Source: a virus. Taken from it: 53,821 nt of DNA. The translations under genes were made by a program, and so were the position numbers. Positions within the stretch are counted from its first letter, which is position 1. Every line of letters begins with the position of its first letter. A model generated the notes under the pieces. It searched no databases. It had not been told where the DNA came from and worked only from the letters and a program-made list of their open reading frames with translations. The stretch spans positions 1-53,821 of IMG/VR virus record IMGVR_UViG_3300006124_000002; one strand, given 5' to 3'. Shown piece by piece: positions 30,766 through 48,004 of the stretch.

Positions 30766-30795
30766 ATACTTGTCTTTGTTTCTAAAAGTTGTCAA
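30766..30795 (-). promoter_or_regulatory. Candidate late promoter in divergent terL/late intergenic
   Basis: A perfect TTGACA lies on the minus strand at 30795-30790, followed 17-18 bases later by CAAGTA/AAGTAT and then, 11 bases on, by the ATG of the first late gene. The -10 is poor, so a phage or alternative sigma factor may be needed. It is the only long-range starting point visible for the ~30-kb late unit. Confidence 0.4.
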
Positions 30796-30806
30796 TACTT
30801 TTGGAC

Positions 30807-32732
30807 ATGGAATATAACGGATTTTCTTTAGAGCAACCAAAAGATACAAATTACGGAATACCAAATTTGATTCATGTTCCACAAATGTTTCGTGAGCTAA
30901 CGGCATATCGTTTGACTCGTGGAGAGTTTGGAAGACGTGAAAGAATCAAAAATGGTATTAAATTAGAACAATCTGGTTTGTTAAATCCTGCACAGCACAT
31001 GATCAATGCCTTCCAATTGATCTACGGCAATGATGTTTTGCTCCATTCTCAAGGAATACCCAACAATTATGCCATAGACATTATTGATTTGTTTTGTAAT
31101 GAGAACGATTGGGGCATTGCAGGGTGTGCAAGTAGTGGAAAAACCTTTTCAGTTGCCGCTTGCATTGTGATTGATTGGCTTTGCGCCCCCGATTGTACAT
31201 CCACATATGTTGCTTCTACCTCTTTGGACGCATCAGAAGACCGTCTTTGGGGTAAAGTATGTACGCTTTACCGTACAGCAATGAGGAATATTCAAGCCCA
31301 ATATGGTGCAAATCAGAGTATTGGAAACCTTGTAGAGTACCGTAGAATGATTGTTTTTGAGACAATTGACACCAAAGATACGGAACGAGACTATACAAAT
31401 GCTATTAAAGCATTGGCTTTTCCCAAGGGTGGTGAAGGAAAACGGTCTGTAGAAAATACACGGGGTAGAAAGAATGCCAGAATGCGGTTGTTTTTGGACG
31501 AATTGGCTGAAATGGATCTCTACGCATTGGATACCCGTGTCAACCTTGGTGCTAACCCCGATTTTATCTTTGGCGGCATGGCAAACCCAGCGGCTACCGC
31601 AAACAATCCCCATACGGAGCTATGTCAGCCCGATGATCCTATGGAATGGGATGCCGTAACCCGTTACACAAAGAAATGGAAGACTCGTACAGGAGTAGCA
31701 TTGCATCTTTCTGGAGAAGATAGTCCAAACTTCAAGGTTCCAGATGCTGAAATACCCCCATTTGATCGTTTCCTTACCGTCCAAGGAGAGGCCGCTACTT
31801 TAAAACGATGCTATGGCAATAAGAATGCCCTAGAATACTGGCGAAATGTCTATGGATGGTGGCCCGATTCTTCCGTAGAACTCACAATCTTCTCAAAACA
31901 GTTCATTCAAGCGTGTGATATTAATTGGGAACCCGTATGGAGTAACAGAACACGGGTAGTTTGCGGCTTTGACCCTGCATTTACGGCAGGAGGAAACAGA
32001 TGTGCGGCTACATTTTGCCGATTTGGGCCAAATGATACCGGGAGAAACCTTGGATTCTACCTTGGAACCCGTGAATATACCTCATCTGTGGGTGATGTTT
32101 TTGAGGAAAGCATTGCAATGCAGTTGGTTAAAGATTGTTTGGAATATGGAGTCCATCCAAGGGACTTTGGATTGGATATTTCGGGTGATGGCGGCAAGAT
32201 GATGAGGGCAATTATCATCGAATGGAGTAAGTTCCATCCAGAAGCCATGTTTGTATTCCCCATTTCCTCAATGGGAATGCCTACGGAAAGGAAAATCAGC
32301 AATCTGGATAAGCGAACTTGTAAAGAAGCGTATGATCGGTTGGTTACGGAGTACTGGTTTGCCGTCCATACGGCCCTGTCTACACGCTCTTTGGTTGGTA
32401 TTGATGTAGAGAAGCACTCTCAAGTAGTAAACGAGTTGTGTAGCCGTCTGTACTACCACAAGGGAAGGAAGGTTGCCGTGGAAAAGAAGCTGGATATGAA
32501 GCATAGGTTGAAGAAATCTCCCGATTTGGCTGACTCTTTGACCTATGCCGTCCAGATGCTTCGCCGGGCAGGACTAGAGTTTTCGTTTGAGGAGGAGTCA
32601 GAATCTTTGGACATCCAAGAAATCAGCGATTGGGAGAACCGATTGATCCATTCCAAAAACAACACCCAAGAAAAACTTGAGGATGATGAATGGGGATATG
32701 GTGGCAAGGGTTGTGATGAGGACGGCTTCTAG
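30807..32732 (+). CDS. terL: Terminase large subunit
   Basis: ATG 30807 gives 641 aa (a TTG at 30789 would add six residues). The ATPase half has Walker A GCASSGKT (~106-113) and Walker B RLFLDELAEM with catalytic Glu (~227-236). The nuclease half has RNase H-like acidic residues in CGFDPAF (Asp389), GLDISGDGG (Asp457) and SPDLADSLTY (Asp573/576). It cuts and pumps phage DNA into the procapsid through the portal. It is transcribed away from the portal operon, and its small subunit is encoded 5 kb away on the other strand. No SD is visible. Confidence 0.93.
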   Translation: MEYNGFSLEQPKDTNYGIPNLIHVPQMFRELTAYRLTRGEFGRRERIKNGIKLEQSGLLNPAQHMINAFQLIYGNDVLLHSQGIPNNYAIDIIDLFCNENDWGIAGCASSGKTFSVAACIVIDWLCAPDCTSTYVASTSLDASEDRLWGKVCTLYRTAMRNIQAQYGANQSIGNLVEYRRMIVFETIDTKDTERDYTNAIKALAFPKGGEGKRSVENTRGRKNARMRLFLDELAEMDLYALDTRVNLGANPDFIFGGMANPAATANNPHTELCQPDDPMEWDAVTRYTKKWKTRTGVALHLSGEDSPNFKVPDAEIPPFDRFLTVQGEAATLKRCYGNKNALEYWRNVYGWWPDSSVELTIFSKQFIQACDINWEPVWSNRTRVVCGFDPAFTAGGNRCAATFCRFGPNDTGRNLGFYLGTREYTSSVGDVFEESIAMQLVKDCLEYGVHPRDFGLDISGDGGKMMRAIIIEWSKFHPEAMFVFPISSMGMPTERKISNLDKRTCKEAYDRLVTEYWFAVHTALSTRSLVGIDVEKHSQVVNELCSRLYYHKGRKVAVEKKLDMKHRLKKSPDLADSLTYAVQMLRRAGLEFSFEEESESLDIQEISDWENRLIHSKNNTQEKLEDDEWGYGGKGCDEDGF

Positions 32733-32788: not shown

Positions 32789-32865
32789 TGGCACAGCCTG
32801 TTGGAATCGAACCAACCCAGTCGGATTTGGAGTCCAACTCGCCCATCCTTGGAACATGAGACTGC
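32789..32865 (-). tRNA. tRNA-Trp (CCA)
   Basis: On the minus strand GCAGTCT pairs with AGGCTGT (two G-U), followed by discriminator G and encoded CCA (32791-32789). The T arm is GTTGG-TTCGATT-CCAAC, and the anticodon arm GTTGGA-CTCCAAA-TCCGAC reads CCA with a possible sixth stem pair. The D arm is weak (TGTTC/GGGCG with several G-U). The length is 77 nt. The irregular D arm makes it divergent, but the encoded CCA and T arm support a genuine gene. Confidence 0.75.
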
Positions 32866-33224: not shown

Positions 33225-33253
33225 TTGACCAGTTAATAAAACACAGGCATAAT
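33225..33253 (+). promoter_or_regulatory. Strong sigma70-type promoter of pentein gene
   Basis: TTGACC, 17-base spacer, CATAAT (5/6 to each consensus hexamer). The ATG follows 10 bases after the -10, so the expected start site is about 4 bases before the ATG and the mRNA has practically no leader. No SD fits in this space. Confidence 0.7.
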
Positions 33254-33263
33254 TTTAACACTT

Positions 33264-34232
33264 ATGGCGAAATTCACACCGCAAGATTACAAGAATGGAT
33301 CATCTATCCCATCTGTACTTGTGGGTGACTCATCTGTTGCCTCCCTTATCAAAGGCTCTTCTTCTGGTATTGCACCTAACCATACCGCAGGAGAACTCTA
33401 CAAAAGGAAACCACAATTCGTGATGTGTCCTCCAAAGTATCTTTCCACTCGCATTCCGAACAATGTGTTCATGAAAAATGAGAAGGTGGATACGGAAAGG
33501 GCAATGCGCCAGTATACCCGGATCAAAAGAAAAATCACCGCACTTGATGTTCAAGTGTTGGAAATCCCCCCGCAGAAAGATTGTCAAGATCAACACTACA
33601 CCGCCAACATTGGCATAGCCTTAAACCCATTCATTGTTCTCGCCAAGTTTTCCGCTGATGGCAGGACACAGGAAGAAGCTCCAGCAAAAAAGTTTTTTGA
33701 AGGACGAGGCTATACGGTGATCCAGCCCCCACACCCATTTGAGGGAGAAGCCGACCTCAAGAAATGGCAAGATGGGGTGTATTTCGGCGGTCATGGAAAG
33801 TTCAGCGATTGGAAAGCGCATGAATGGATCATGAAAAAAACGGGTGTTGAGATTATCCCAATCCGTGAAACATCCGATTCCCTTTACCATCTTGATTGCT
33901 CACTCTTCGTGATTGATAAGGAAAACTTTATGGTGTGCAAGGGAGGCATGGATCGAGAGTCATTCAAGCGTCTTGAAAAGGTTGCCAACATCATTGTGGT
34001 TCCAGAGGATGTCATGGCTACAGGAGCAACCAACTTGGTCAAAATCCCAGGCAATAAGAAGATCATGTTGTCTGGTATGTTCCAGCCAGAGTTCCCCAAC
34101 TATAGAAAAGGAATGGAGTGGATGTTGACAACTATGGATAAGTTTGGCTATTCCATCATTTTCTGTGACATTGATGAAGCCGACAAATCCGGGGCCGACA
34201 TATCCTGTATGGTCATGCATTTGGATTTTTAG
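33264..34232 (+). CDS. Pentein-fold enzyme: dimethylargininase/amidinotransferase-like, 322 aa
   Basis: The sequence follows the DDAH/arginine deiminase/amidinotransferase superfamily. It opens with PQFVMCPPKYLSTRIPN (~50-66, the usual MCPP...N start), then PFEGEADLK (Glu162, Asp164) and GGHGKFSD, the catalytic-type His209/Asp211 in YHLDCSLFVID, and a C-terminal nucleophile Cys315 in SGADISCMVM. Such enzymes act on guanidino groups of arginine, methylarginine or related compounds; the exact substrate cannot be read from motifs. It has its own strong promoter with no leader and is separated from terL by tRNA-Trp, so it is independently expressed. Confidence 0.8.
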   Translation: MAKFTPQDYKNGSSIPSVLVGDSSVASLIKGSSSGIAPNHTAGELYKRKPQFVMCPPKYLSTRIPNNVFMKNEKVDTERAMRQYTRIKRKITALDVQVLEIPPQKDCQDQHYTANIGIALNPFIVLAKFSADGRTQEEAPAKKFFEGRGYTVIQPPHPFEGEADLKKWQDGVYFGGHGKFSDWKAHEWIMKKTGVEIIPIRETSDSLYHLDCSLFVIDKENFMVCKGGMDRESFKRLEKVANIIVVPEDVMATGATNLVKIPGNKKIMLSGMFQPEFPNYRKGMEWMLTTMDKFGYSIIFCDIDEADKSGADISCMVMHLDF

Positions 34233-34236
34233 ATCC

Positions 34237-34407
34237 ATGAACAATTTCCTCAAATGGTTAATTGGGGGAATTGCTTATCTTAACGGGAACTGTCCCGAAT
34301 GTTGGAAAGAAATGAATACTTGTCATGGTGATCCTTGCCACGTATGCCGTGTCGGTGGAATTTTCCCGCCCAAAGACATCTGGCGTAGATTTATACAATC
34401 AAAATAA
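34237..34407 (+). CDS. Small Cys-rich (zinc-binding-like) protein, 56 aa
   Basis: ATG 34237 follows the pentein stop by 4 bases. A hydrophobic start (FLKWLIGGIAYLNG) is followed by CPECW, TCHGDPC and CHVC, giving five or six Cys that could bind one zinc. It is co-transcribed with the pentein gene. No family recognised. Confidence 0.55.
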   Translation: MNNFLKWLIGGIAYLNGNCPECWKEMNTCHGDPCHVCRVGGIFPPKDIWRRFIQSK

Positions 34408-34413
34408 AAACCC

Positions 34414-34731
34414 ATGACACCAGAACAAGATGCCCATGAAATTTGGAACAAAGCATCAGAAGCTGGTTTAGAAAAATACTTTGCTGGAAGCAGGGAACAC
34501 AGAACCCAATTTTGGACTGCTGGTGCAGGATGGTATGCCAAGAACCTAAAGGACGAGCAATTAGATCTTGTCAGTTACCTTCACCATCTTACCAACAGGA
34601 TTGAATCCATCCAGTTCCTTGCCCAAATGATGGAGGAAGACAATGTGTCGTTGAGAGATGCGGCAACAATCCTAAAGGAACTTGTTTCCGATAGATCACC
34701 AAAAGACATTCCCCATCAATCCAATGACTAA
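34414..34731 (+). CDS. Hypothetical helical protein, 105 aa
   Basis: Soluble helical protein with aromatic clusters (EKYFAGSREHRTQFWTAGAG) and a C-terminal helix (LAQMMEEDNVSLRDAATIL). It overlaps the phosphoesterase start by 8 bases, hence probably translationally coupled. No motif identifies a function. Confidence 0.55.
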   Translation: MTPEQDAHEIWNKASEAGLEKYFAGSREHRTQFWTAGAGWYAKNLKDEQLDLVSYLHHLTNRIESIQFLAQMMEEDNVSLRDAATILKELVSDRSPKDIPHQSND

Positions 34732-36538: not shown

Positions 36539-36612
36539 TACCGATTGGTGTAACGGTAGCACAGGGGACTTTGACTCCCCTAGTCATGGTTCAAATCCAT
36601 GATCGGTAGCCA
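36539..36612 (+). tRNA. tRNA-Gln (TTG)
   Basis: The acceptor TACCGAT pairs perfectly with ATCGGTA (36602-36608), followed by discriminator G and encoded CCA. The anticodon arm GGGGA-CTTTGAC-TCCCC reads TTG (36571-36573); the T arm is CATGG-TTCAAAT-CCATG. All parts are canonical, 74 nt including CCA. Confidence 0.93.
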
Positions 36613-39276: not shown

Positions 39277-40131
39277 ATGAGCAAAGAAAAAGTTGACGTA
39301 TATCAAATTGTAACTGACAGAATCATCGACTTGTTAGAAGATGGTGTTGTTCCTTGGCACAAGCCATGGGCGGGAGGTAGTAATCAACTACCCATGAACC
39401 TTGTGAGTAAAAAGGCTTACAGGGGACTAAATGTATGGTTACTCTCATGCTCTGGTTATGCTTCCCCTTATTGGGTAAGTTACAAACAGGCAACAGAGTT
39501 AGGTGGACAAGTTAGGAAGGGTGAGAAATCAACCCTTGTGGTCTACTGGAAGATGTTTGAAACAATCGACAAAGACACAAAGGAGAAAAAGGTTATCCCG
39601 ATGCTCCGTTACTATAATGTATTTAATGTTAGCCAATGTGACGGAATTAATGTCCCAGATACGGAGACGCAACCAACGATAGATTTCAATCCTATCGAAG
39701 AAGCGGAGAAAATCGTAGCTAATATGACGAAGGTTCCACGCATCACTCATATTGAGCAACAGGCTTATTATAACAGGTCAAGTGACCATGTTAATATGCC
39801 ACAGAAAGAAACCTTCAAAGGTGAGGCTGAATACTACTCGACCCTGTTTCATGAGTTGACGCACTCAACTGGCCATGAATCCCGGTTAGGGAGGTTTCAG
39901 AATCAAGTTAGTAAATTCGGTGATAGCAACTACGCAAAAGAGGAATTGATTGCCGAGATGGGAGCTAGTTATCTGTGCGCGATGGCTGGCATTGTTGATC
40001 GCACAATCGACAATAGTGCCGCTTATATTGCCAACTGGTTGACCAAGCTACGCAACGACAAAAAGCTAGTAGTTAGTGCGGCGGGAAAAGCCCATGCCGC
40101 TTGTGATTATATCCTTGGAGTTAGTGCCTAG
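39277..40131 (+). CDS. ArdC-like antirestriction protein, 284 aa
   Basis: Residues ~5-125 match the ArdC N-terminal ssDNA-binding domain (VYQIVTDRIIDLLEDGVVPWHKPW, in two parts: the helix and the VPWHKPW turn; then LNVWLLSCSGYASPYWVSYKQ). The C-terminal zincin-like domain has HELTH (192-196) within a longer FHELTHSTGH and a downstream Glu helix (KEELIAEMGASYL). ArdC proteins protect incoming DNA from type I or other restriction. A strong SD (AAGGAG) precedes the ATG, and the CTAG-rich base use resembles terS, so both may be acquired. It is flanked by strong hairpins on both sides. Confidence 0.82.
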   Translation: MSKEKVDVYQIVTDRIIDLLEDGVVPWHKPWAGGSNQLPMNLVSKKAYRGLNVWLLSCSGYASPYWVSYKQATELGGQVRKGEKSTLVVYWKMFETIDKDTKEKKVIPMLRYYNVFNVSQCDGINVPDTETQPTIDFNPIEEAEKIVANMTKVPRITHIEQQAYYNRSSDHVNMPQKETFKGEAEYYSTLFHELTHSTGHESRLGRFQNQVSKFGDSNYAKEELIAEMGASYLCAMAGIVDRTIDNSAAYIANWLTKLRNDKKLVVSAAGKAHAACDYILGVSA

Positions 40132-46994: not shown

Positions 46995-47322
46995 GGCTAG
47001 AGGAAACACTACCCGCCGAGTGGCGGGTAAGATGAACAAGACTGAAGAGGCTTATTCAAATACTCTACAAGAAAGGAAACTCCGAGGAGAGATTCATCAT
47101 TGGAGCTTTGAAACAATCACCTTAAGATTGGCAGACAGAACAACCTATACGCCAGATTTCTTTTTGATGTTACCTAACGGAGAGATCCAGTTCCATGAAG
47201 TCAAAGGTTTCTGGCATCAAGCTGGACGCATTAAAATAAAAGTAGCGGCTGAAAATCATCCTTGGTTTGACTTCCAAGCAGTACAACTCAAGAAAAAGGA
47301 GTGGGTCTATGAGCAGTTTTAA
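46981..47322 (+). CDS. DUF1064-like PD-(D/E)XK endonuclease, 113 aa
   Basis: The catalytic pattern is visible: Glu in KTEEAYSNTL, YTPDFFLML (Asp), then QFHEVKGFW (Glu, Lys). This fits small phage DUF1064/RusA-replacement nucleases that cleave branched DNA. It starts at ATG 46981, overlapping the previous gene by 14 bases, and its C-terminus overlaps the Mom-like gene. Confidence 0.65.
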   Translation: MRRFRARGNTTRRVAGKMNKTEEAYSNTLQERKLRGEIHHWSFETITLRLADRTTYTPDFFLMLPNGEIQFHEVKGFWHQAGRIKIKVAAENHPWFDFQAVQLKKKEWVYEQF

Positions 47323-48004
47323 TATTAATAATAAATGGTCTGTTCAACAGATTTCATTTTCTGATGTTGAGCCTTGGTTATTGAAACGCCATTATGCCAG
47401 AAGGATTCCACCTATTTCTTATGCATTTGGTGCATTTGAGGGTAATAATTTGATTGGAATTATTACATATGGAGTTCCTTTAAGCTCCACATTAAGAACT
47501 GGAATATGCGGTGAAGAATATGAACATTTAGTTCTTGAGCTTAATAGGCTTTGTTGCAGGAATGAAAAAAATATAGCAAGTAGATTAGTTTCCAACTCTA
47601 TGGATTTAATTCGAAAACCAAGAATAATTGTTAGTTATGCAGATACATCACAAGGTCATGTGGGATATGTGTATCAAGCAACCAATTTTATTTATACTGG
47701 ACTCACGGCAAAAATGATGGATTGGAAGGTTAGGGGTAAAGATTCTCTTCATCATTGTTCTATTGGTGATGAGTTTAGGGGACAGGAAAATAGATCCCAA
47801 AAAATGAAAGAAAAGTATGGAGACCTTCTTTACCAAGAGGAAAGATCCAGAAAGCACAGATATGTTTTTTTTATAGGAAATAAGAAAGAAAAAAAGAAAA
47901 TTAAATCAGTATTGAAATACGAAATAAAACCTTATCCAAAAGGTGAAACAAAAAAATATGATTCAAGCGGGTATATTGAAACTCAAATGCTTTTAATTTC
48001 ATGA
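47309..48004 (+). CDS. Mom-like DNA adenine modification protein, 231 aa
   Basis: GNAT-fold pattern of Mu Mom relatives: EPWLLKRHYARRIPPISYAFGA (read as LLKRHY..R then YAFGAF), LELNRLCC, IVSYADTSQGHVGYVYQATNF and YTGLTAK. Mom converts adenine to a hypermodified form resistant to many restriction enzymes. A clear SD (AGGAG) precedes ATG 47309. The gene is visibly AT-richer than both neighbours, indicating recent acquisition. No Com-like regulator gene is next to it. Confidence 0.72.
   Translation: MSSFNINNKWSVQQISFSDVEPWLLKRHYARRIPPISYAFGAFEGNNLIGIITYGVPLSSTLRTGICGEEYEHLVLELNRLCCRNEKNIASRLVSNSMDLIRKPRIIVSYADTSQGHVGYVYQATNFIYTGLTAKMMDWKVRGKDSLHHCSIGDEFRGQENRSQKMKEKYGDLLYQEERSRKHRYVFFIGNKKEKKKIKSVLKYEIKPYPKGETKKYDSSGYIETQMLLIS

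What the first reader, a model, noticed from the sequence alone, without database searches (positions are those of the whole stretch)
33225..34232. Phage pentein enzyme (dimethylargininase/amidinotransferase-like) with its own leaderless promoter
The catalytic-type residues His209, Asp211 and Cys315 and the MCPP...N and FEGEAD motifs are all visible. Such an enzyme could consume arginine or methylated arginine, alter host arginine/agmatine levels, or act on a modified guanidino group. Its isolation from the terL transcript and strong promoter argue for a dedicated early function; I know of no assigned role for such genes in phages.
Basis: partly seen in the sequence, partly recalled or inferred. 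Interest (0 to 1): 0.75.

Follow-up and report, generated by a model that had tools for sequence, protein, structure and literature searches.

The report
Phage arginine-dihydrolase-like pentein enzyme
A lake phage carries, behind its own promoter, a well-preserved enzyme of the kind that strips the guanidino group from arginine; in many other phages and some bacteria a relative sits beside a decarboxylase, which suggests a short, undescribed route from arginine to small amines during infection.

Summary
The gene at 33264-34232 encodes a 322-residue pentein (mean pLDDT 84; residues 1-46 disordered). The catalytic residues, including the Asn equivalent to ArgZ N71, are almost invariant in 190 distinct relatives, and the core is under strong purifying selection. 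The near-leaderless promoter recurs in most close relatives. The gene is an accessory cassette: 31 of 55 close terminase relatives have it, 24 have an empty site. In most distant relatives (129 of 155 with Arg at position 180) it neighbours a phosphatidylserine-decarboxylase-like gene; the two also co-occur in Campylobacter and Bacteroides phages. The window branch lacks that partner and has Phe180 in place of this Arg, with a basic residue gained at 226. I propose a guanidino dihydrolase yielding ornithine or putrescine plus ammonia and CO2. Fold and catalytic class are well supported; substrate, timing and purpose are inference. No activity was tested.

The parts
33225..33253 (+). sigma-70-type promoter, TTGACC-N17-CATAAT
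33264..34232 (+). pentein of the ArgZ-like guanidino dihydrolase group; N67, D109, N115, R134, E160, H209, D211, C315 conserved
33264..33401 (+). N-terminal extension (residues 1-46), predicted disordered, shared by close relatives, in most pairs evolving faster than the core
30789..32732 (+). large terminase, conserved upstream neighbour of occupied and empty sites
34237..34407 (+). small Cys-rich ORF, first gene after the cassette; follows terL at empty sites
34414..34731 (+). ORF of 105 aa, conserved downstream neighbour

Best explanation
It is a guanidino dihydrolase of the ArgZ-like branch of the pentein superfamily, carried as an accessory single-gene cassette with its own promoter. By homology Cys315 attacks the guanidino carbon, with E160 and H209 handling protons, D109/D211 holding the guanidinium and N115 allowing the second hydrolysis, so that an arginine-type substrate becomes an amine (ornithine from arginine, or putrescine from agmatine) plus two ammonia and CO2. 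In relatives with a neighbouring phosphatidylserine-decarboxylase-like enzyme the pair would run arginine to ornithine to putrescine; the window phage would rely on host enzymes or act on a different substrate. Fold and residue conservation are shown; reaction, substrate and benefit are inferred.
For: Best PDB sequence matches are ArgZ/AgrE, profile E 4.6e-33 against 6.7e-06 for DDAH; fold Z 37.4 against 29.0 for AstB, also a dihydrolase, and 28.6 for DDAH. ArgZ N71 aligns to N115, and an N71S ArgZ was crystallised covalently bound to a reaction intermediate (entry title). D109, R134, E160, E162, H209, D211 are in 190/190 relatives, N115 in 188, C315 in 183 of 184 ungapped. Core dN/dS 0.025-0.064 where calculable. 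PS-decarboxylase-like neighbour in 129 of 155 Arg180 relatives; Pfam E 3.9e-27, catalytic Asp nearly invariant and His, Ser invariant; best folds E. coli PSD, then tryptophan decarboxylase PsiD. A PotD-like polyamine-binding protein lies nearby in ten Verrucomicrobia loci and an ODC-family decarboxylase in some cyanobacteria.
Against: NCBIfam arginine-dihydrolase and DDAH models both match below their cut-offs, the DDAH one slightly better (92.8 against 83.2 bits). The D/N and HxD signature also occurs in two actinobacterial proteins, one annotated dimethylargininase, so it does not by itself separate these groups. The window branch has Phe180 where nearly all other relatives, and the five outgroups aligned, have Arg, so binding of the arginine carboxylate is uncertain. 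No PSD-like partner in the window or 11 related records, some partial.
Confidence: 0.5

Rival explanations
1. The window branch has changed substrate, for instance to agmatine or a peptide-bound arginine, because the second carboxylate-binding Arg is lost.
For: F180 in all 34 distinct window-type sequences, none with the PSD-like neighbour; acidic 302/304/312 in nearly all. The five outgroups aligned have Arg.
Against: R134, the other presumed carboxylate ligand, is kept; a basic residue at 226 (34/34 against 3/155) may compensate. Mostly one clade of 33, support 1.0, plus L205 elsewhere, so few independent events.
Confidence: 0.25
2. Arginine deiminase or dimethylargininase activity: one hydrolysis to citrulline.
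For: Pfam DDAH_eukar 8.9e-12; NCBIfam DDAH model scores slightly above the dihydrolase model.
Against: N115 replaces the Asp, and HLD the HLK, seen in the P. aeruginosa DDAH aligned; fold is closer to ArgZ.
Confidence: 0.12
3. Amidinotransferase making a guanidino compound, as the Campylobacter phage annotation says.
For: Annotation of homologues; weak SxtG match.
Against: Amidinotransferases rank well below ArgZ in fold.
Confidence: 0.08

Closest known systems
ArgZ / AgrE arginine dihydrolase domain (Synechocystis Sll1336, Anabaena Alr4995)
   Same: fold, catalytic Cys/His/Glu, the Asn at N71, guanidinium Asp residues, R134
   Different: about 25% identity; no ornithine cyclodeaminase domain; F180 for the conserved Arg; disordered N-terminal extension; phage cassette
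Fletchervirus 'amidinotransferase' (NCTC12673 gp044) and Bacteroides phage DAC19_243
   Same: same family, 30-32% identical in alignment, same catalytic residues
   Different: Arg at 180; their genomes also hold the PSD-like gene, adjacent in DAC19, about 43 kb away in NCTC12673
Virus-encoded polyamine enzymes catalogued in PMC9992855
   Same: phage genes for arginine/ornithine to putrescine
   Different: a text search of that paper finds no 'dihydrolase' or 'phosphatidylserine'

Membership tests
Pentein / guanidino-group modifying superfamily | alpha/beta propeller fold with catalytic Cys, His, Glu | tested here: met
Arginine dihydrolase (ArgZ-like) | fold closest to ArgZ and Asn at the N71 position | tested here: met
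Arginine dihydrolase (ArgZ-like) | curated NCBIfam cut-off NF052232 | tested here: not met
   83.2 against 450 bits; so called 'like', not a member
Arginine dihydrolase (ArgZ-like) | conversion of arginine to ornithine, CO2 and 2 NH3 | not testable with these tools
   needs an assay
DDAH | HLK and Asp as in the P. aeruginosa enzyme | tested here: not met
   HLD and Asn
DDAH | NCBIfam cut-off NF045659 | tested here: not met
   92.8 against 300 bits
Amidinotransferase | transfer to an acceptor amine | not testable with these tools
   fold rank only

The most novel reading that the evidence does not exclude
Phages carry an undescribed two-enzyme putrescine route (pentein dihydrolase plus PSD-like amino-acid decarboxylase), and the window branch has lost the partner and shifted substrate, for example to agmatine.
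Probability: 0.25. Interest if true: 0.75.

Novelty: new variant of a known kind. Interest (0 to 1): 0.55.

Why it matters
It turns a vague 'amidinotransferase' annotation, in a family with at least 200 loci in a viral contig collection, into a testable prediction: an ArgZ-type dihydrolase, in most lineages paired with a decarboxylase, changing arginine and polyamine pools in infected cells. The presence and absence of the cassette in close relatives offers a natural comparison.

Tried and rejected
T4 alt.-3 weak matches (E about 0.2-3): on the strand opposite the annotated gene, taken as chance. The idea that the enzyme makes the deoxyinosine of Fletchervirus DNA: dropped on chemistry, since hydrolysis of guanine would give xanthine (own knowledge). 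Literature: 'agmatine dihydrolase' occurs in one held paper, a Bacillus genome announcement, and the two ArgZ/AgrE structure papers are not held, so ligand roles of ArgZ residues beyond entry titles rest on my own knowledge.

Full report
Observation. The open reading frame is real and as described. Its promoter, TTGACC-N17-CATAAT, is the single exact match in the window to the pattern drawn from relatives, and the -35, -10 and spacing recur in most of the distinct upstream sequences of close relatives, with the start codon about 6-12 nt downstream of the -10. A generic promoter scan alone would not have singled it out.

Accessory cassette. Of 80 viral loci with a related large terminase, 55 have at least 1.6 kb downstream; 31 carry the pentein and 24 do not. 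In the 24, terL is followed by the same small Cys-rich ORF and 105-aa ORF without it. The promoter pattern is in 26 of 31 occupied and 3 of 24 empty sites. Twelve of the empty-site records, all possibly partial, gave no pentein elsewhere.

Family. Pfam, NCBIfam and PDB sequence searches place it among DDAH/arginine-dihydrolase penteins. The AlphaFold2 model (pLDDT 83.6, pTM 0.80) superposes best on ArgZ (Z 37.4, 1.4 A, 260 residues), ahead of AstB 29.0, DDAH 28.6, arginine deiminase 26.8, SxtG 25.6 and AGAT 24.7. In 190 distinct relatives D109, R134, E160, E162, H209, D211 are invariant, N115 is in 188 and C315 in 183 of 184 ungapped. Pairwise core dN/dS is 0.025 to 0.064 where it could be computed; the N-terminal extension evolves faster in most pairs.

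Partner gene. A gene of about 240-280 aa matching PS_Dcarbxylase lies beside the pentein in many phages and bacteria: 129 of 155 Arg180 sequences have it within 500 bp. In the phage record collection the pentein is in 46 records and the decarboxylase in 45 of those same records, read by eye from the two lists; these are essentially two lineages, Fletchervirus and Bacteroides phages. Its catalytic Asp is nearly invariant and His and Ser invariant; the fold is nearest E. coli PSD, then PsiD (TM 0.41-0.48, a modest match). In genomes a MATE or ABC transporter often follows, in ten Verrucomicrobia loci a PotD-like protein is near, in some cyanobacteria an ODC-family decarboxylase stands instead.

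Window branch. All 34 F180 sequences lack the adjacent partner, and PF02666 was not found in the window or 11 related records, while it was in the two partner-bearing phage records searched alongside. Thirty-three of the 34 form a clade with support 1.0; L205 falls with Arg-type L070 and L080 at lower support. A basic residue at 226 is in 34/34 F180 and 3/155 Arg180 sequences. Five more distant plasmid-encoded relatives all have Arg at 180, so Phe looks derived. The same alignment shows the D/N plus HxD signature in two actinobacterial proteins, one annotated dimethylargininase, so that signature separates this family from P. aeruginosa DDAH but not from that group.

Comparison sequences. Of the ten plasmid hits I aligned five. 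The Mycobacterium ulcerans hit was left out because a virulence plasmid is not to be fetched as a yardstick; the others served.

Conclusion. Pentein fold and an intact ArgZ-like set of active-site residues: well supported. Dihydrolase activity: likely. Substrate, timing and benefit to the phage: inference. The counts above are of related sequences, not independent events.

Noticed in passing
window 47267-48004 (+): Mom-family DNA modification protein, Pfam PF25680, E 2.9e-40.
   Followed up: no
window 39277-40131 (+): ArdC N-terminal domain plus zincin-like domain, possible anti-restriction protein.
   Followed up: no
window 32789-32865 (-) and 36539-36612 (+): tRNA-Trp (CCA), lying between terL and the cassette, and tRNA-Gln (TTG).
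   Followed up: no
L138, L144, L150: Cyanobacterial loci with the pentein near an ODC-family decarboxylase, an agmatine-deiminase-like second pentein and an ABC transporter; possible export pathway.
   Followed up: partly
L015 (Bacteroides phage DAC19): By eye, neighbours of the pentein look like dUTPase, primase, dCTP deaminase and GMP reductase/IMP dehydrogenase genes; not searched against families.
   Followed up: no
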